Below are positions 2,244 through 34,082 of a DNA stretch of 48,435 nucleotides, piece after piece. Where the stretch lies: positions 1 through 48,435 of IMG/VR virus record IMGVR_UViG_3300009168_000018; one strand, given 5' to 3'. The stretch's first letter is position 1; each line of letters starts with the position of its first letter. The stretch is from a virus. The notes under the pieces were generated by a model. The model saw only the letters and a list, made by a program, of their open reading frames with translations, was not told the DNA's origin and searched no databases. Position numbers and translations under genes: made by a program.

Positions 2244-2804
2244 ATGGCAGACTCAATCATGCCCGGCATCTACCCCGCCGAAATCGTCAAGCACTGGTGG
2301 GAGACGAGCCGTTCCGGAGACCCGGTTCTCGCGTTCACCTTGAACGTCCACGAGCCGGAATGGGGCACGGAATACCCGATGAGCCACCGGGTCTACTTCA
2401 CGCCGAAGGCGGCGGGGATGGCCCGGGCGCAATTGAAGCTGCTTGGCTTCGACTCGGACGCTCAAGACCTGGCCGACATCGGTGAATCGGTGTCGTTCGA
2501 GGGCGTGCAGGTCGAGGTCACGGTCGATGAGCAGACCTACCAGGGCAAGTCGCAGGTCCGTGTTGCCCGGTTCGGCGGCAAGCCGAAGCCGCCCGAGAAA
2601 TCGGCACTCGCCAAGGCCACCCAGGCGTTGCGTGACGCGAAGCGAGTGAACCGGGACGCCTACAGTGATCCGGTGGAGGAAACGCCGCCAGCGAAGCCAC
2701 CGGAGCGTAAGCGGGCAGAGAAGCCGCCCTACCCGGACCCGAACGCGATGCTGACCGAGGCGGAGGCGGCGGCAGAGCAGGCAGGATCAGACATTCCCTT
2801 CTAA
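2244..2804 (+). CDS. SSB-like protein (DUF669-type) with SSB-style C-terminal tip
   Basis: A 186-residue protein. Residues 1-115 look like a beta-rich OB-type fold (FTLNVHEPEWGTEYPMSHRV, then VEVTVDEQTYQGKSQVRVAR). A Lys/Pro/Glu-rich disordered linker follows. It ends in GSDIPF, which matches the acidic hydrophobic tip that bacterial SSB proteins use to dock partners. DUF669-type proteins beside Sak4 are phage SSB analogues, and this gene lies 6 bases after the Sak4-like ATPase. It probably coats single-stranded DNA and loads the annealing protein and host replication factors through the tip. The fold assignment rests on gene order and pattern; the DIPF end is directly visible. Confidence 0.72.
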   Translation: MADSIMPGIYPAEIVKHWWETSRSGDPVLAFTLNVHEPEWGTEYPMSHRVYFTPKAAGMARAQLKLLGFDSDAQDLADIGESVSFEGVQVEVTVDEQTYQGKSQVRVARFGGKPKPPEKSALAKATQALRDAKRVNRDAYSDPVEETPPAKPPERKRAEKPPYPDPNAMLTEAEAAAEQAGSDIPF

Positions 2805-2848
2805 GGAGGTAAGTACCGTAGCGACTCCGGCGGCTCGTAGCCGTCGGT

Positions 2849-2882
2849 GCCCGGGGTAACAGGGTATCCCGCCCCGGGCTTT
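2849..2882 (+). terminator. GC-rich hairpin with short T-run after the SSB-like gene
   Basis: GCCCGGGG (2849-2856) pairs perfectly with CCCCGGGC (2872-2879) and is followed by TTT. An inner GGG-TAT-CCC pairing is possible. It sits 45 bases after the SSB-like stop codon. The T-run is too short for a confident intrinsic terminator, so it may be part of the folded RNA that follows. Confidence 0.4.
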
Positions 2883-2993
2883 GGAGCGTGTGGCGGGCAC
2901 GGCGACCCGCTGAGGAAGTCGGTATGGGACAAACACGGCATGGCGACTCCGAAAGCCTGTTAATAGAAGCCGGTTCGACTCCGGCCCGCTCCA
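2883..2993 (+). ncRNA. tRNA-like structured RNA 1
   Basis: A 111-base element closed by an acceptor-like stem: GGAGCG (2883-2888) pairs with CGCTCC (2987-2992), followed by A. A perfect T-arm, GCCGG-TTCGACT-CCGGC (2969-2985), directly precedes the 3' acceptor strand, and its loop matches the tRNA consensus TTCRANY. A D-arm-like hairpin GCGGG-CACGGCGA-CCCGC lies at 2893-2910. The third arm (GGAAGTCG at 2914-2921 with CGACTCC at 2944-2950) has a 22-base loop, unlike any anticodon loop, so this is not a normal tRNA. No coding frame covers 2805-3026. The 3' end CCGCTCCACTTGGCAG (2986-3001) recurs exactly at 3832-3847. Confidence 0.45.
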
Positions 2994-3026
2994 CTTGGCA
3001 GTAAACTCGCCACGACGGAATGTAGT

Positions 3027-3299
3027 ATGCAACGCAAAGCAAAAACGAACGAATACAGGGACATTCCAACGCTCTGGGTTGGAGTTCGTAATGGTCGCAA
3101 GGCGTTTGAGATCCTGTGGGAGAGCGATGGTCTTAATTGGTTTATTGCAGGAAAGCTGGCGTGTCATAAATACGCTACGAATGAATGGCGACTACTCCTT
3201 CATGGGCGGTCGCTCGGAACGCATGCATACAGCACGTTTCAGGACGCAATGCGGGCCGCGCAACGATTTAAGGCAATTAGGGAAAGGATGGCGAGATGA
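3027..3299 (+). CDS. Hypothetical protein, 90 aa
   Basis: A basic, tryptophan-containing 90-residue protein (LWVGVRNGRKAFEILWESDG ...) with a beta-rich first half and a C-terminal helix. It starts 26 bases after the folded RNA element and overlaps the next gene by 4 bases (ATGA), so the two are coupled. The ribosome site is weak (ACGGAA). Family not recognised. This gene and the next lie between two structured RNA regions. Confidence 0.65.
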   Translation: MQRKAKTNEYRDIPTLWVGVRNGRKAFEILWESDGLNWFIAGKLACHKYATNEWRLLLHGRSLGTHAYSTFQDAMRAAQRFKAIRERMAR

Positions 3300-3601
3300 A
3301 AGAGCCAACGAGGAAGGAATGGACCTGCTACGAACTCACTCACTGTGGGGAAGGAGGGCGAGGCCAAAAGGTTGTGACGAATACTTCCTATTACGTCAGC
3401 CCCCAGGAGGCAGCCGAACTCGCCGCGGAACACTTCGACGAGGAGGAAAAGGCAAAAGAGCGTTGCGGGGACGATTCGTTTGACGGCGGGTTTCGGTACA
3501 TCGAGGTTGTGGACGACGCGGGGAACGCGGCCGGAAGATTCGAGGTGCTTTGCCGCGTCGAGCGGAAGTACAGTGCGGATAGGATGAAGGAGAATCCGTG
3601 A
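3296..3601 (+). CDS. Hypothetical acidic protein, 101 aa
   Basis: A 101-residue protein whose ATG overlaps the upstream stop. The central segment is Glu/Asp-rich (AAELAAEHFDEEEKAKE). The rest could be a small alpha/beta domain (FRYIEVVDDAGNAAGRFEVL). No metal motif or known domain is visible. The structured RNA region begins right after its stop. Confidence 0.65.
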   Translation: MKEPTRKEWTCYELTHCGEGGRGQKVVTNTSYYVSPQEAAELAAEHFDEEEKAKERCGDDSFDGGFRYIEVVDDAGNAAGRFEVLCRVERKYSADRMKENP

Positions 3602-3607
3602 AAACGC

Positions 3608-3677
3608 TCGGGAGACGGGTGGAGTCAGCACGGGTCGCTCCCGTGGGACAGATGCCGTTCGAGTCGGCCCTCCCGAC
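3608..3677 (+). ncRNA. tRNA-like structured RNA 2A, cloverleaf-like
   Basis: A 70-base element. TCGGGAG (3608-3614) pairs perfectly with CTCCCGA (3670-3676). An anticodon-type arm CACGG-GTCGCTC-CCGTG (3629-3645) has exactly five pairs and a 7-base loop with T at the usual position 33; it would read CGC. The T-arm GCCG-TTCGAGT-CGGC (3654-3668) has a consensus TTCRANY loop. The D-arm is only three weak pairs. The base after the anticodon is T instead of a purine. This is the most tRNA-like of the group, but it looks degenerate. Confidence 0.45.
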
Positions 3678-3683
3678 TGACAT

Positions 3684-3771
3684 CCTGGCGCTGCAAGGTG
3701 GTCTTAGACCTGCCCGACCCACCTCTGGTGCAAGTGGGAAAACAATGCCGGTTGGATTCCGGCAGCCAGGA
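3684..3771 (+). ncRNA. tRNA-like structured RNA 2B
   Basis: An 88-base element six bases after element 2A. CCTGGC (3684-3689) pairs with GCCAGG (3765-3770), then A. The T-arm GCCGG-TTGGATT-CCGGC (3747-3763) has five perfect pairs and a near-consensus loop. A hairpin CCCAC/GTGGG (3718-3722 with 3734-3738) takes the anticodon position but has an 11-base loop. GCA-GGT/ACC-TGC (3693-3713) takes the D-arm position. As in element 1, the anticodon-equivalent loop is too big for decoding. Confidence 0.4.
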
Positions 3772-3777
3772 TTTTTG

Positions 3778-3839
3778 GGAGCGGGCCGGGGACGGCACAG
3801 GGCTGCCGCCTGCCGGCGGGCGTCGGAGCCGCCGCTCCA
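3778..3839 (+). ncRNA. Acceptor-closed structured RNA 2C
   Basis: A 62-base element six bases after 2B. GGAGCGG (3778-3784) pairs perfectly with CCGCTCC (3832-3838), then A. Inside are GCCG-GGGA-CGGC (3785-3796, a GNRA tetraloop) and CCGCC-TGCC-GGCGG (3806-3819). No T-arm is visible. Its 3' end and flank CCGCTCCACTTGGCAG repeat those of element 1. The rest of the gap (3840-3969) holds one small hairpin, GCGGC-ACTAC-GCCGC (3911-3925), and no gene. Confidence 0.4.
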
Positions 3840-3969
3840 CTTGGCAGCCGACAACCGTTACTCGTAAATGAAAGGTTTTGCCTGTTCCAGCGAGACAAGG
3901 AAATACACCCGCGGCACTACGCCGCAACGGCTGCCAGTAAAACAAGGATTTCACGCATGAGGCGACAGC

Positions 3970-4767
3970 ATGAAGCGCGGAACGCCTGACCACCCCAAGA
4001 CGAAGCACTTGATCCAACTGCTTGGGATCGCTCGCTATGAGGCGGTCGGAATTCTCGAATCACTCTGGCACTTCGCGGCGAATTACGCGAAGCGCGGAGA
4101 TATCGGCAAGTGGTCAAACCGGGAGATCGCGGCGGCTCTCGACTGGCGTGGAGACCCCGAGGCCCTTATCGAGGCTTTGACCGAGGCCCATTGGCTCGAC
4201 CCGTCGGACGAATTCCGACTCACGATACACGATTGGCCGGACCATGCGGACCAGACAGTCCAGCGGTGCGAAGAGGTTAAAAAACTAGGATATGCTAGCA
4301 AAAACTATAAAATGCTAGCAAATGCTAGCCAGCCAATGCCCTGCCAATGCCCTGCCAAAGCCAATGCCAAAGCCGACAGTCTGACAGTCAGTCCCGTCAG
4401 TCTGTCAGAAACGATTTCTTGGGGAGACTTCGATTGGGCTACCATCCTCCCCAAATGCAGGGAGCTTGCCGCGGTGCTACGAAACGGCAGCGACCCGCTT
4501 TCGCGGAAGGACCGCTCGCTAGTTGCCAAGACAGTGGCTCTCGATGCCGCTGGCATGTTGCCGCCCCAATGCCTTGCTGAGTGCATGGACGCGACAAAGG
4601 AAATCCATCACGGCAAGCCTGCGGCATACTTCACCGGCTGCCTGAAAAAGAGATTCGCGGACGCTGGTTTGGATTTTCCGCGCGTCATGGCCTCGGTGAA
4701 AGTCCCCTCTGGATTTGGCGAACCGGCAAAGTCACAAGGCGGCGGAAACGAATACCAGGACGTGTAG
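3970..4767 (+). CDS. Replication initiator / replisome organiser-like protein
   Basis: A 265-residue protein. Residues 1-100 resemble the winged-helix DNA-binding domain of phage replication organisers (HPKTKHLIQLLGIARYEAVG, then WSNREIAAALDW and a later HDWPDHAD). A low-complexity linker follows (residues about 105-145, rich in Ala, Asn, Lys and Ser), then a helical C-terminal domain (LSRKDRSLVAKTVALDAAGM ... AAYFTGCLKKRF). The linker-coding DNA carries phased direct repeats, the layout of lambda O, where the origin lies inside the initiator gene. The protein probably binds these repeats and recruits host helicase. No phage helicase or polymerase is present. GAGG at 3959-3962 precedes the ATG. 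Confidence 0.7.
   Translation: MKRGTPDHPKTKHLIQLLGIARYEAVGILESLWHFAANYAKRGDIGKWSNREIAAALDWRGDPEALIEALTEAHWLDPSDEFRLTIHDWPDHADQTVQRCEEVKKLGYASKNYKMLANASQPMPCQCPAKANAKADSLTVSPVSLSETISWGDFDWATILPKCRELAAVLRNGSDPLSRKDRSLVAKTVALDAAGMLPPQCLAECMDATKEIHHGKPAAYFTGCLKKRFADAGLDFPRVMASVKVPSGFGEPAKSQGGGNEYQDV
4292..4410 (+). repeat. Iteron-like repeats, candidate replication origin
   Basis: ATGCTAGC occurs at 4292, 4312 and 4322, spaced 20 and 10 bases (helically phased), within an AT-richer patch. CCAATGCC/CCAAAGCC units follow at 4333, 4344, 4355, 4361 and 4367. Then comes a dense GACAGTC/GTCAGTC cluster with an inverted repeat TGACAG...CTGTCA to about 4408. All lie in the linker of the initiator gene. 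I infer an origin by analogy with lambda. Confidence 0.5.
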
Positions 4768-5776: not shown

Positions 5777-6090
5777 CGAACGACGAACTGATTGAAGACC
5801 TGATTTCCGATATCAAGAGCCTGCGATTTTACCAGCTTCCGTTGGCGGTGGCGACGGTCCATGCGATTGAGTCGCTGCGGGCGATCGTTGACCGCTTGCC
5901 GAAGACGGCGGACGGAGTGTCGATCGTTCCCGGCATGAAACTTAGACGGGAAATTGACAGCGACACCATCCTCGAAATTGAAACCGAGCTATGCATGAGG
6001 AGCCGAAACGCGATCCCCGAGAATACCTGCGCCCTGCTCGGATGGAGCGAGTGGTATTCAGACGAAGCCGCGGAGGCTGCCAAGCGATGA
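5773..6090 (+). CDS. Hypothetical protein, 105 aa
   Basis: The ATG at 5773 overlaps the upstream stop (ATGA) and has GGAG at 5767-5770. The sequence is mostly helical in the first half (NDELIEDLISDIKSLRF). The second half (CMRSRNAIPENTCALLGWSE) contains two cysteines. Not recognised. It is coupled by ATGA to the methyltransferase. Confidence 0.65.
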   Translation: MTNDELIEDLISDIKSLRFYQLPLAVATVHAIESLRAIVDRLPKTADGVSIVPGMKLRREIDSDTILEIETELCMRSRNAIPENTCALLGWSEWYSDEAAEAAKR

Positions 6091-6869
6091 CTGACCGGCC
6101 CCGATGCTACCGCTGCCATGCCGAGATGACGCCGAAGGGCGGGTGCGAGTGTGCGGATCGCTGCACTTTGATCCTGGGCGATTGCCGCGACGTGCTCCCG
6201 CTCTTGGAGCCGGGGAGCGTGGACCTCTGCCTGACCGATCCGCCATTTCCCGGGCTTGTCGGTGGACACGATAGAGACTTCCCCGGTGGAGTTGCGAAGC
6301 GAGCGGTAGTTACCGAGAGCGTCGGCCAGCCGTGGGACATAGGCTTGAACGAGTGGCTTCCGGCATCATGGAACGTGACTCGCTTTGGCGCGATGGTCTT
6401 CTGTTCCTTTCACTCTGTCGTTGACGTTCCCGCAACGATCCCGGCGGCTAAGAAGGTAACGCTTGGCGTCTGGTACAAGCGAAACAGCCCGCCCACGGGA
6501 AAGAATCTGCCGAGATACACCACGGAGTTCATTTGGATGCTGCGGAAGGAGCCGGGGCTTGCATGGGACCGACTGACCACAACGCTGTTTGACGTCCCGC
6601 TTCCGCAAGGCGGGTGTATGGCCCAAGAGCGGATTCTGAACCCTGACGGAACGACGGCCCATCCGACGCAGAAGCCGCTACAGCTTATCCGAGACCTGCT
6701 TGTGGTAGGCGGGGCCATCATCCTCGACCCGTTTGCAGGGGTTGGCACCACTCTTCTCGCCGCGAAGCTGCTCGGCCGCCGGGCCATCGGGGTGGAGATC
6801 GAGGAAAAATACTGCACCATTGCGGCGAACAGGCTAAAGCAAGGCGTAATGAAACTGGAGACCGACTGA
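6087..6869 (+). CDS. DNA methyltransferase (N4/N6, PF01555 type)
   Basis: This 260-residue enzyme has the catalytic motif TDPPF (about residues 50-54) ahead of the AdoMet-binding motif ILDPFAGVGTTLLAAKLLGR (about 214-233), the order of the N4-cytosine/N6-adenine class. HPTQKPLQLIRDLL just before the second motif is typical of the family. The N-terminus adds a small Cys cluster (CYRCHAEM ... GCECADRC), perhaps a zinc-bound target-recognition part. No partner nuclease is adjacent, so it is probably an orphan enzyme that marks phage DNA against host restriction or for regulation. The ATG at 6087 overlaps the upstream stop, with GGAGG at 6072-6076. Confidence 0.85.
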   Translation: MTDRPRCYRCHAEMTPKGGCECADRCTLILGDCRDVLPLLEPGSVDLCLTDPPFPGLVGGHDRDFPGGVAKRAVVTESVGQPWDIGLNEWLPASWNVTRFGAMVFCSFHSVVDVPATIPAAKKVTLGVWYKRNSPPTGKNLPRYTTEFIWMLRKEPGLAWDRLTTTLFDVPLPQGGCMAQERILNPDGTTAHPTQKPLQLIRDLLVVGGAIILDPFAGVGTTLLAAKLLGRRAIGVEIEEKYCTIAANRLKQGVMKLETD

Positions 6870-7243
6870 TGCCCGCCCTAGTCTTCACCGTTTTCGTTGA
6901 CAAGGTAGCGGACGGAACCAAATCTCAAACGATTCGCCCCCACCGCAAGCGGCCGATTCGGGTCGGCGACACGCTCTACCTGAGCAAGTGGGACGGCGCG
7001 CCGTACCGAAGCAAGCGGACCCCGTTGGGCGTCGGGATCTGCACGGAGACGATGCCGATTGAGATAGACGAGGACCGCCGCGCGTTTCTCGATGGCACGT
7101 GTTTTGGGCACTACACGGCGAATGAACTGGCCCGATTGGATGGGTTCACCTGCGCCGCCAAGATGCTCAACTGGTTTGAGGCGACGCACGGGCTGCCGTT
7201 TTCTGGCGACGTGATTCGGTGGAGGCTGACTGATGCAACGTGA
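6869..7243 (+). CDS. ASCH/PUA-like domain protein
   Basis: A 124-residue protein with the ASCH pattern: VADGTKSQTIRPHRKRPIRV (the conserved K-QTIR segment), GDTLYLSKW, a central GVGICTETMPIEI strand, and a C-terminal FSGDVIRWRL. ASCH domains are RNA-binding beta barrels related to PUA. In phages they often occur near DNA/RNA modification genes. The start overlaps the methyltransferase stop by one base, and the next gene overlaps it. Its substrate cannot be told from sequence. Confidence 0.75.
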   Translation: MPALVFTVFVDKVADGTKSQTIRPHRKRPIRVGDTLYLSKWDGAPYRSKRTPLGVGICTETMPIEIDEDRRAFLDGTCFGHYTANELARLDGFTCAAKMLNWFEATHGLPFSGDVIRWRLTDAT

Positions 7244-7499
7244 ACTATTCCAGACCACGGCGGCCGTCGAGGACTGCCGCGTCACCTGTCCGTATTGCGG
7301 CTACGGCAAGGTGCTCGACGACTTCGACAGCCTGGGCGTGTTTGACGAGTTGGGCATGATTTGCCCGGGGTGCCTGTGCGAGTTTGATTCTCCGTTCGCT
7401 GCGGAAGTGGACCGGAGGATGGCTGAGTTGGGCCTGACGGGCGCGGGGGCGAGGCTGATGCTCGAAGTGATAATACGAGAGGAGAGGGAGGGGGAATGA
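7233..7499 (+). CDS. Zinc-finger protein, 88 aa
   Basis: Two cysteine pairs, CPYCGYGKVLDDF and ICPGCLCEF, spaced about 28 residues apart, form a probable zinc ribbon. A helical C-terminus is rich in Glu and Arg. It lies between the ASCH and radical SAM genes with overlaps on both sides, so the three are made together. Confidence 0.65.
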   Translation: MQRELFQTTAAVEDCRVTCPYCGYGKVLDDFDSLGVFDELGMICPGCLCEFDSPFAAEVDRRMAELGLTGAGARLMLEVIIREEREGE

Positions 7500-8317
7500 C
7501 GCAACCTTGGCCGAAGGACATCGTGTGCTGGGAGGATGGCGGAAAAGATTTCGGCCGCCGTCAGTGCATGAGCGTTCCGTTCACTTGGCTCCTGCCTCGG
7601 GCACAGCGAATCATCGACAATTTCCCCGGCGTCTGGCTTGTCGGCGGGCCGGCCATATCGCTGATGCCTGGGTATCTCAAGGGATGCCAAATCGGCTATC
7701 AGTACGATGGCGTCTTACAACGGATCAACCCCGAGGCGACGCGGACTTCCGCCGGATGCCCTCGCAAGTGTACCTTCTGCGGCGTGAAAAACATCAGCGG
7801 CCCGACGCTCCGTGAATTTGCGGTCTGGCCGGACTTGCCGGTAATCTGCGATGACAACCTACTGGCTTGCACTCCGCAGCATTTTAAGGAGGTCTGTCGT
7901 CGGCTTGAGCGGCACGGCTGGTGCGACTTCAACCAGGGGCTCGACTGCCGACTGCTGGCTCGATGGCACGCCGATCAAATTGCGAAAATCAAGAAGCCGA
8001 TCGTGCGACTGGCCCTCGACAGCGACGACCTGCGGGACGTATGGGCAACCGCCCTGGATTACCTCCTGACCGCCGGCTGCGCGAAGCGGCGAATCCGGTC
8101 CTACGTCCTGTGCGGTGTCGGCACTCCCGATGCCGATTGGAAGCGGTGCGGATTTGTCGAGTCGTTCGGCGTGATGGCGCTGCCGATGTGGCGTCACTCG
8201 CTCGGGGCGATGAGGTACAACGAAATTACGCCGACGCAGGAGATAAACGGGTGGACGAAAGAGGAGCAGCGGCGATTGATGCGGTGGCACTACAAGCACG
8301 CAGGGAGCAAGCCGTGA
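7496..8317 (+). CDS. Radical SAM superfamily protein
   Basis: A 273-residue protein with the radical SAM cluster motif CPRKCTFC (Cys88, Cys92, Cys95), preceded by TSAG as in B12-type and MiaB-like enzymes. Before it comes a region with KDFGRRQ and WLVGGPAISL. After it comes a TIM-barrel-like segment: FNQGLDCRLL, IVRLALDSDDL and RSYVLCGVGTPDADW. The predicted role is SAM cleavage at a 4Fe-4S cluster to make a 5'-deoxyadenosyl radical; the substrate is unknown. Its place after a DNA methyltransferase and an ASCH protein suggests nucleic acid modification, which is inference. It overlaps the upstream gene (ATGA). Confidence 0.8.
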   Translation: MTQPWPKDIVCWEDGGKDFGRRQCMSVPFTWLLPRAQRIIDNFPGVWLVGGPAISLMPGYLKGCQIGYQYDGVLQRINPEATRTSAGCPRKCTFCGVKNISGPTLREFAVWPDLPVICDDNLLACTPQHFKEVCRRLERHGWCDFNQGLDCRLLARWHADQIAKIKKPIVRLALDSDDLRDVWATALDYLLTAGCAKRRIRSYVLCGVGTPDADWKRCGFVESFGVMALPMWRHSLGAMRYNEITPTQEINGWTKEEQRRLMRWHYKHAGSKP

Positions 8318-8469
8318 TTTTCTTTCCCCGTCCAACCCTGACCGTGCAACTACAGCGTCCTCCGCTCCGCGTGGAGGCGGCACCGCCAGCGAAGTGGCTG
8401 AGTAACCTATCACGAAAGGAACCGACCGATGAGCAATTATCTTCGCACGATCCATCCTGCCCACGTTGA
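8314..8469 (+). CDS. Small hypothetical protein, 51 aa
   Basis: A GTG overlapping the radical SAM stop (GTGA) opens a 51-codon frame, starting IFFPRPTLTVQLQRPPLRVE and overlapping the next gene by 41 bases. It would otherwise leave a gap of about 110 bases in a tightly packed operon. There is no domain, and the long overlap lowers confidence. Confidence 0.4.
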   Translation: MIFFPRPTLTVQLQRPPLRVEAAPPAKWLSNLSRKEPTDEQLSSHDPSCPR

Positions 8470-33383: not shown

Positions 33384-34082
33384 GTGCTGACGATCGAAAT
33401 GACGATTGCGATCAACCTCGCACGGCGGCCCGATCGGTGGGACGACTTGCAGCGGGAGCTTGCCGCGACCGAGTGGCCGTTGCCGAGACCGATTCGCTAT
33501 CTCGCACAGGACGGCCGCGACTTGGAGCCGCCCGACTGGTGGCAACTCAAGTATCCGCACTCGCGTTGCGGGCAATACGGCTGCTTTCTCTCGCACGCCG
33601 AGTGCATTCGCTGGGCGGCCCAATTCGATTGGGACTCGGTGCTGATTCTTGAGGACGACGCCTTTTTCTGCCCCGGCTTCCGCGAGCGGTATTACCAGTT
33701 TGCGGCGATGGTCCCCGACGACTGGGATCTGGTGTACTTTGGCGGCAACTGGCAAGACCCGGACTGTGAGCCGCCAGAGGAAATCCAGCCCGGCCTCCTC
33801 CGTCTGCACGGCTGCCTGACGACCCACGCCTACGTGGTGCGATCCACGATCTACAGCCGCTTGACGCAGGTGCTCAGTTCGCCCGCGGCCTTGCAGACGT
33901 TCCCGATTCATACGATTGACCGCATCCTTTGCGCGATGGGCCGTCGCGGGGACTTCACTTCGTACGCGCCGCGCCGCTGGTTGGTCGGGCAATCGGGCAG
34001 CCCGAGCGACCTCTTGACCGGGTGCAGCCTGGCACCGCGGTACTGGAACGCAGAACTCCCGTCGAAAGCTGAGGTGCAGTAG
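33384..34082 (+). CDS. Glycosyltransferase family 25-like
   Basis: 232 residues from the GTG at 33384, with GGAGG at 33374-33378. Motifs in order: TIAINLARRPDRWDDLQREL, GCFLSHAECIRWAAQFDWDS and VLILEDDAFF (the EDD acid triplet, about 90-92), then LHGCLTTHAYVVRSTI. These are the GT25 (LPS-type galactosyltransferase) hallmarks. It lies between the tail chaperones and the tape measure, where no glycosyltransferase belongs in standard siphoviruses. It may glycosylate a tail or capsid protein, or alter host surface sugar. It overlaps the tape measure by one codon. Confidence 0.82.
   Translation: MLTIEMTIAINLARRPDRWDDLQRELAATEWPLPRPIRYLAQDGRDLEPPDWWQLKYPHSRCGQYGCFLSHAECIRWAAQFDWDSVLILEDDAFFCPGFRERYYQFAAMVPDDWDLVYFGGNWQDPDCEPPEEIQPGLLRLHGCLTTHAYVVRSTIYSRLTQVLSSPAALQTFPIHTIDRILCAMGRRGDFTSYAPRRWLVGQSGSPSDLLTGCSLAPRYWNAELPSKAEVQ

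What the first reader, a model, noticed from the sequence alone, without database searches (positions are those of the whole stretch)
2849..3847. Array of tRNA-like RNAs with abnormal anticodon arms
Elements at 2883-2993, 3608-3677, 3684-3771 and 3778-3839 are each closed by a 6-7 base-pair acceptor-like stem. Three of the four carry a T-arm with a consensus or near-consensus T-loop. The last three are separated by exactly six bases, like a tRNA operon. Two have an anticodon-equivalent loop of 11 or 22 bases, and one lacks a T-arm. Elements 1 and 2C share the 3' end CCGCTCCACTTGGCAG. They may be tRNA mimics or decoys (for example against host anticodon nucleases or tRNA-processing enzymes), or decayed tRNAs. 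The folds are read by eye; the function is inference.
Basis: partly seen in the sequence, partly recalled or inferred. Interest (0 to 1): 0.68.

Follow-up and report, generated by a model that had tools for sequence, protein, structure and literature searches.

The report
Phage tRNA-like RNAs with remodelled anticodon arms
A virus of bacteria (probably of planctomycetes) carries RNA genes that keep the top half of a transfer RNA but replace the part that reads the genetic code; a matching RNA in another virus and a look-alike family in E. coli/Salmonella phages suggest a poorly catalogued kind of tRNA-mimicking viral RNA.

Summary
Elements E1 (2883-2993), 2A (3608-3677) and 2B (3683-3772) each pair a 6-7 bp acceptor stem with an abutting T arm. 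They fill the only two sizeable gaps between genes in this stretch. Shuffling rarely reproduces them (gap 1: 75/20,000; two in gap 2: 1/12,000). ARAGORN at default settings and Rfam miss them. 2C is weaker: a 7-bp stem plus a 16-base 3' end identical to E1, no T arm.

E1 is the solid case. A second phage contig (L113:14743-14877) carries an RNA with the same acceptor, T arm and ACTTG trailer and the same arm order. Its D stem shows a compensatory change, and its anticodon stem is entirely different yet paired. A model built from that RNA alone ranks E1 first outside itself. Nearest phage relatives lack the insert. No protein is conserved across 3598-3867.

Two comparable cases turned up: tRNAs with expanded anticodon arms in a related phage's tRNA array, and an almost unannotated ~126-nt tRNA-like RNA with strong covariation in 92 phage records and 170 E. 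coli genomes.

Best reading: non-decoding, tRNA-shaped RNAs made to be handled by host tRNA machinery. Decoy function is inference. Decay remains possible for 2A-2C. New variant of a known kind.

The parts
2883..2993 (+). E1: extended tRNA-like RNA (111 nt including the discriminator A)
   Evidence: 6-bp acceptor + T arm; homolog L113:14743-14877; R1 model 36.3 bits, E=2e-5 over 204 kb
2893..2910 (+). E1 D-like arm GCGGG-CACGGCGA-CCCGC
   Evidence: sequence; homolog has GCGTG/CACGC at the same place, a compensatory change
2914..2950 (+). E1 remodelled anticodon arm (GGA-AGTCG...CGACT-CC with inner TATG/CATG)
   Evidence: fold; homolog has CCTGTAG/CTACAGG enclosing two hairpins
2969..2985 (+). 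E1 T arm GCCGG-TTCGACT-CCGGC
   Evidence: scan
2986..3001 (+). E1 acceptor 3' strand, discriminator A and trailer CTTGGCAG; first copy of the 16-bp repeat
3608..3677 (+). 2A: short tRNA-like element; 7-bp acceptor, reduced D region, 5-bp/7-nt anticodon-position hairpin 3629-3645, T arm 3653-3669
   Evidence: scan and shuffles; R2 full-model hit 10.7 bits at 3573-3678
3683..3772 (+). 2B: tRNA-like element; 7-bp acceptor, D-like hairpin 3696-3711, 11-nt loop at the anticodon position (3718-3738), 6-bp T arm 3746-3764
   Evidence: scan and shuffles; second-best R1 and R2 hit in the 1.4-kb stretch
3778..3839 (+). 2C: element closed by GGAGCGG/CCGCTCC, no T arm; tentative member
   Evidence: shares the 16-nt 3' end with E1; fold z -1.4
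3832..3847 (+). second copy of CCGCTCCACTTGGCAG
2244..2804 (+). flanking gene, ssDNA-binding-protein-like (weak PHROG match); ends 78 bp before E1
   Evidence: phrog_378 at E=0.069; 45% identical to the L001 homolog
3970..4767 (+). flanking gene, replication-initiation protein; follows 2C. In relative L001 it follows the upstream gene directly, without the RNA insert
   Evidence: phrog_9474 at E=2.4e-23; L001

Best explanation
E1, and probably 2A and 2B, are genes for small non-coding RNAs that keep the upper half of a tRNA (acceptor stem stacked on a T arm, with a D-like arm) but have swapped the decoding arm for something else. Shown: the geometry, its rarity by chance, its place in gaps between genes, a homolog of E1 with conserved fold, and the absence of a usable anticodon loop in E1 and 2B. 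Inferred: they are transcribed with the early/replication genes, cut and CCA-tailed by the host's tRNA-maturation enzymes, and persist as stable tRNA-shaped molecules that cannot decode. The most likely use is in trans, as a mimic that occupies a host protein recognising the acceptor/T elbow of tRNA (a tRNA-cutting or tRNA-tail-cutting defence nuclease, or a tRNA-processing or modifying enzyme). The free arm may hold or discriminate the target. I put about 0.65 on 'selected tRNA-like RNA' for E1, and about 0.3 on the decoy/mimic mechanism.
For: Shuffle tests. Position in gaps, with no coding signal there. E1 homolog L113:14743-14877: identical 29-nt 3' run GCCGG...CTTG, 7-bp acceptor, D stem GCGTG/CACGC against GCGGG/CCCGC, anticodon stem CCTGTAG/CTACAGG against AGTCG/CGACT, z -2.67. 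R1, built from that homolog alone, gives E1 as the best match outside itself in 204 kb (36.3 bits, E=2e-5) and E1 then 2B as top two of the 1.4-kb stretch; R2, built from unrelated enterophage RNAs, gives E1, 2B, 2A as the top three there. Two tRNAs with long anticodon-arm insertions in the array of a related phage (L097:7146-7257 and 7265-7357; Rfam tRNA 24.5 and 32.5 bits). The enterophage RNA shows that such RNAs can be under selection: 95.8% of cells paired, covariation 0.339 against 0.161 shuffled, 0/500, in the inserted helices too. Its anticodon-position loop CAGCGCA lacks U33.
Against: E1 has one homolog; 2A-2C have none. The homolog was found through its T arm/acceptor, so that identity is partly selected for. 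Ordinary planctomycete tRNA-Ser genes score as high with R1 (up to 37.3 bits), so the score shows tRNA-likeness rather than unique kinship, and CTTG trailers follow ordinary tRNAs too. In the whole window, two other sites outscore 2B with R1. E1's best-energy fold pairs the D-side strand with the variable region rather than forming a clean cloverleaf. No RNA-seq, and no gene for a tRNA ligase, nuclease or Ro60 in the window to point at a partner.
Confidence: 0.5

Rival explanations
1. Decayed tRNA genes: the phage (or an ancestor like the tRNA-array phage G008:C135) once had ordinary tRNAs, and the elements are remnants.
For: A phage with a related terminase carries a tRNA array in which ARAGORN tRNAs. 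2A has an almost normal anticodon hairpin but a shrunken D region; 2C has no T arm. No relatives of 2A-2C were found.
Against: Acceptor and T stems are nearly perfect while the middle is unlike any tRNA, whereas random decay would hit all arms. E1 has a homolog with the same architecture and compensated stems.
Confidence: 0.25
2. Functional but unusual tRNAs (reduced D arm or small intron) that still decode, e.g. 2A with anticodon CGC.
For: 2A can form a 5-bp/7-nt hairpin GTCGCTC with U33 and CGC. ARAGORN in intron mode at very low cutoff reads E1 as tRNA-Ala(GGC) with a 25-nt intron.
Against: The same settings call hundreds of false tRNAs. E1 and 2B have no 7-nt anticodon loop; the A3:U70 pair in E1 and 2C lacks alanine's G3:U70; bacteria have no enzyme for short tRNA introns (general knowledge).
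Confidence: 0.08
3. Processing or structural elements within a polycistronic mRNA: tRNA-shaped RNase P/RNase Z cut sites separating early genes, or leader structures, with no trans role.
For: They sit between co-oriented genes; tRNA-like ends recruit RNase P and RNase Z (general knowledge).
Against: Elaborate internal arms would be unnecessary. The enterophage look-alike sits in three different contexts and both orientations, which argues for a trans role in that family.
Confidence: 0.12
4. Chance structures in GC-rich spacer or in a small protein gene (ORF 3598-3867).
For: The ORF starts at GTG overlapping the previous stop; z-scores are modest.
Against: Shuffle tests; codon log-odds -0.115 and flat GC by codon position for the ORF, against about +0.1 to +0.26 for confident genes; no family match.
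Confidence: 0.05

Closest known systems
Canonical phage tRNAs and arrays
   Same: Acceptor and T arm geometry; tandem arrangement; no encoded CCA, as in many planctomycete tRNAs seen here
   Different: No recognisable anticodon arm in E1 and 2B; below Rfam tRNA detection; not called by ARAGORN at default
Phage tRNAs with anticodon-loop changes that evade tRNA-cutting defences (PMC10264068; see also PMC11555353 on retrons)
   Same: Phage-encoded, anticodon region altered, possible counter-defence role
   Different: Those are functional tRNAs with point changes; here the whole arm is replaced
tmRNA and its tRNA-like domain (RF00023)
   Same: Acceptor + T arm with the anticodon arm replaced; the T arm of E1 scores weakly
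   Different: No tag frame or pseudoknots; E1 and 2C have A3:U70 rather than the G3:U70 alanine signal; E1 has a D-like stem
YrlA bacterial Y RNAs (RF02553)
   Same: tRNA mimicry by a non-coding RNA; YrlA-like RNAs occur in phage contig L098/L114
   Different: YrlA is permuted (T arm before D arm, acceptor closed by a loop; read from L098); the window elements are in normal tRNA order and no Ro60 domain was found
Pseudo-tRNA tRNA-Other of Bacillus cereus (PMC3399842)
   Same: tRNA-shaped, does not function in translation, yet has a phenotype
   Different: Bacterial chromosomal gene beside a genomic island; no sequence relation tested
T4 stable RNAs C and D in its tRNA cluster (from memory)
   Same: Small stable RNAs of unknown role beside phage tRNAs
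   Different: Not compared here

Membership tests
Canonical tRNA | 7-bp acceptor abutting a 5-bp T arm with TTCRANY loop | tested here: met
   E1 (6 of 7 acceptor pairs), 2A (4 T pairs), 2B (6-bp T arm, one loop mismatch); not 2C
Canonical tRNA | 5-bp anticodon stem with 7-nt loop and U33 | tested here: not met
   E1 and 2B fail; 2A can form one; 2C has a 4-nt loop (sequence)
Canonical tRNA | Recognised by ARAGORN default or Rfam RF00005 | tested here: not met
tmRNA | Full Rfam tmRNA match with tag reading frame | tested here: not met
   Only 17 positions of the T arm, 9.8 bits
YrlA Y RNA | Rfam RF02553 match, permuted order | tested here: not met
   No YrlA match in the window stretch at E<=10
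YrlA Y RNA | Ro60/TROVE protein encoded nearby | tested here: not met
   Not among the 25 of 27 Pfam families shown for 74 ORFs; indirect
tRNA pseudogene | No conservation of structure in relatives | tested here: inconclusive
   E1: conserved in one homolog; 2A-2C: no relatives found
E1/L113 tRNA-like RNA | GGAGCG acceptor, 5-bp D-like stem, remodelled anticodon arm, GCCGG-TTCGACT-CCGGC T arm, ACTTG | tested here: met
Enterophage ~126-nt tRNA-like RNA (HK75 type) | Sequence homology; D arm AGCTC/GAGCT; extra domain between the D arm and an ATCGG-CAGCGCA-CCGAT hairpin | tested here: not met
   Architectural resemblance only; R2 finds E1 at 19.3 bits, E=0.0043 over 104 kb, below ordinary tRNAs
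Decoy for tRNA-targeting defence | Binds or is cut by a host tRNA nuclease and protects the phage | not testable with these tools
   Needs experiment

The most novel reading that the evidence does not exclude
Diverse phages (planctomycete-type, lambdoid, virulent Salmonella siphoviruses) carry a largely unannotated class of selected, non-decoding 'extended tRNA-like' RNAs: tRNA acceptor/T/D domains with an inserted or swapped decoding-side domain. They act in trans on tRNA-recognising host or defence proteins, and the window holds a local cluster of them.
Probability: 0.4. Interest if true: 0.82.

Novelty: new variant of a known kind. Interest (0 to 1): 0.62.

Why it matters
Standard tRNA finders drop these RNAs, so they are largely invisible in phage annotation. 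If they are tRNA mimics they offer a direct, RNA-only route to counter tRNA-targeting immunity, a fast-moving subject. The enterophage family puts the question into E. coli and Salmonella, where deletion and pull-down are easy.

Tried and rejected
Exact 16-mer CCGCTCCACTTGGCAG in viral contigs: 7 hits, none followed by tRNA-like context, chance. Homologous position in relatives L001/L009, L010, L011: no elements, insert absent or replaced. Small ORF 3296-3601: no relatives. Element DNA against 50,697 phages and 294 planctomycete genomes: only short T-arm/acceptor matches or chance. The 29-mer with 3 mismatches in 392 planctomycete genomes: none. MAFFT alignment of E1 with its homolog misaligned the 5' end, so a model from the homolog alone was used instead. 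attP idea (tRNA 3' end at an integration site): considered and set aside because each element also has the 5' acceptor strand; not tested further. Ro60/Y RNA idea: no YrlA match and no TROVE domain shown. P22B sncRNA (PMC13397905) lies upstream of the N homolog, like BIS08P22's tRNA-like RNA, but its printed sequence is different; not claimed as the same. SaltySpitoon hit: an ordinary tmRNA.

Full report
What was claimed. Four tRNA-like elements at 2883-2993, 3608-3677, 3684-3771 and 3778-3839, with acceptor-like stems, three T arms and abnormal anticodon arms; proposed as tRNA mimics, decoys or decayed tRNAs.

Setting. The window is an IMG/VR virus record of 48,435 bases. It has terminase, portal, head-protease, major head and tape-measure genes, a Holliday-junction resolvase and replication-initiation gene, methyltransferases and a CsrA homolog. 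Terminase relatives include planctomycete MAG contigs, so the host is probably a planctomycete; this is inference. The elements lie in two gaps between co-oriented genes: 2805-3026, after a gene weakly like an ssDNA-binding protein, and 3602-3969, before the replication-initiation gene. In relative L001 (66% identical AAA protein) the two flanking genes are adjacent, so the block with the RNAs and two small ORFs is an insertion. The small ORF 3598-3867 that overlaps 2A-2C has no family match and non-coding codon statistics (-0.115 per codon, against about +0.1 to +0.26 for confident genes).

Are the structures real? Reading the sequence gives E1: GGAGCG(T)-GTG-[GCGGG CACGGCGA CCCGC]-TGA-[GGA AGTCG...CGACT CC]-18 nt-[GCCGG TTCGACT CCGGC]-CCGCTCC-A-CTTGGCAG. 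2A: TCGGGAG...CTCCCGA with a T arm around TTCGAGT. 2B: TCCTGGC...GCCAGGA with the T arm TGCCGG TTGGATT CCGGCA. A scan for a T arm directly abutting a 7-position acceptor found exactly these three in the region. In shuffled gap 1 such an element appears in 75 of 20,000 trials (4 with a perfect loop); two or more appear in 1 of 12,000 shuffles of gap 2. 2C has a 7-bp stem and a 16-nt 3' end identical to E1, and no other direct repeat of that length exists there, but no T arm. Folding energies by themselves are not remarkable. ARAGORN at default and Rfam find no tRNA.

Relatives of E1. A scan of viral contigs with the T-arm/acceptor 24-mer CCGGTTCGANTCCGGCCCGCTCCA found three loci, and ARAGORN calls an ordinary tRNA at none of them. 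L100/L113 (an 87.6-kb viral contig) carries GGAGCGG-CG-[GCGTG GAGGGTGTA CACGC]-TT-[CCTGTAG ... CTACAGG]-17 nt-[GCCGG TTCGACT CCGGC]-CCGCTCC-A-CTTG: the order, arm lengths and ends of E1, with a large two-hairpin domain in place of the anticodon arm (z -2.67). The D stem differs by a compensatory pair; the anticodon stems share no sequence, yet both pair. A covariance model from this single RNA finds E1 as its best match outside itself in 204 kb of assorted sequence (36.3 bits, E=2e-5), above the tRNAs of two arrays. Caution: planctomycete tRNA-Ser genes reach 37.3 bits in whole genomes, and CTTG also follows ordinary tRNAs, so the score measures tRNA-likeness. The evidence for kinship is the joint match of arms, ends and trailer. 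The other two loci are a YrlA-type Y RNA and tRNA array (L098/L114; 47.7 bits to RF02553, below its cut-off) and a minimal tmRNA-like RNA (L099, 45.7 bits to RF00023, just below its cut-off).

Parallels. A Pirellulales MAG contig (G008:C135) with a terminase relative of this phage holds a tRNA array in which ARAGORN tRNAs. Between tRNA-Val and tRNA-Asp sit two elements that ARAGORN misses, with normal acceptor, D and T arms but 34-42 unaligned bases in the anticodon arm (Rfam tRNA 24.5 and 32.5 bits). A marginal blast match of E1's T arm led to a lambdoid phage, HK75. Between its late promoter region and the holin gene it has a 126-nt RNA with a 7-bp acceptor, D arm, inserted domain, an ATCGG-CAGCGCA-CCGAT hairpin and a T arm. 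Its relatives number 92 phage records and 170 of 5,426 E. coli genomes. One record labels a fragment of it tRNA-Ser and a few list overlapping proteins; most have nothing. Nine sequences show all six helices kept (95.8% of cells), 30 cells with double changes against 10.8 shuffled, and none of 500 shuffles reaching the covariation score. Its settings differ: the Q-holin gap, just upstream of an N-like gene, and beside tail genes on the other strand. That family is not a sequence relative of E1, but it shows that phages do maintain tRNA-shaped RNAs with a rebuilt decoding side. A model of it ranks E1, 2B and 2A as the top three matches in the 1.4-kb stretch, mostly through the T/acceptor end.

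How it probably works. The acceptor/T elbow is what RNase P, RNase Z, the CCA-adding enzyme, T-loop modifying enzymes and several defence nucleases recognise (general knowledge; Cas12a3 cuts tRNA tails, PMC12851939). Keeping that elbow while giving up a usable anticodon loop fits an RNA that is treated as a tRNA without decoding. The most likely role is a trans-acting mimic or decoy; phage tRNAs are already linked to escape from tRNA-cutting defences (PMC10264068, PMC11555353). The step from shape to target is inference. Decay remains the main rival for 2A-2C.

Verdict. Observation confirmed, with small corrections (2B starts at 3683; spacers are 5 and 5; E1's big loop is itself paired). E1 is best seen as a selected, extended tRNA-like RNA; 2A and 2B probably similar; 2C doubtful. 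New variant of a known kind. I found no paper describing this class in the open-access library searched, which does not cover most subscription journals.

Noticed in passing
L117:305-430 (HK75, NC_016160.1 about 33746-33871); also L119:616-739, L120:616-742, L121:603-729, L122:601-727, L123:601-727, L124:616-741, L125:616-741, L126:615-740: Almost unannotated, covarying ~126-nt tRNA-like RNA in 92 phage records and 170 E. coli genomes, absent from Rfam 15; in some prophages it lies just upstream of the N antiterminator gene.
   Followed up: partly
L097:7146-7257 and L097:7265-7357 (G008:C135): Two tandem tRNAs with expanded anticodon arms sharing GGCTCGGGCACCGCGG...CCGTGGTCGC, inside a large tRNA array of a planctomycete phage contig; missed by ARAGORN.
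   Followed up: partly
L114:1396-2480 (viral contig IMGVR_UViG_3300021170_000011): Apparent array of YrlA-type Y RNAs (repeats of GTTGCGAAGGCCACGGATACTTC) beside 27 ARAGORN-called tRNAs in a 100-kb viral contig.
   Followed up: partly
L099:2683-2602 (minus strand): 82-nt minimal tmRNA-like RNA with the G3:U70 pair and no tag frame in a viral contig (45.7 bits to RF00023).
   Followed up: no
L116:152-432 (Streptomyces phage SaltySpitoon, ON260819.1): Unannotated full tmRNA (84.4 bits).
   Followed up: no
L113:13918-14063 and L113:14885-15021: Two further stem-closed elements near the E1 homolog: one with a 9-bp acceptor-like stem and T arm, one lacking a canonical T arm (compare 2C).
   Followed up: partly
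L097 spacers in 5809-8403: Spacers of the tRNA array carry a repeated GGCCAGAGG-type inverted-repeat motif.
   Followed up: no
window, exact ORFs not resolved: CsrA and FeeM-like (N-acyl amino acid synthase) Pfam matches among the phage's ORFs, unusual cargo; seen only in the tally over 74 ORFs.
   Followed up: no
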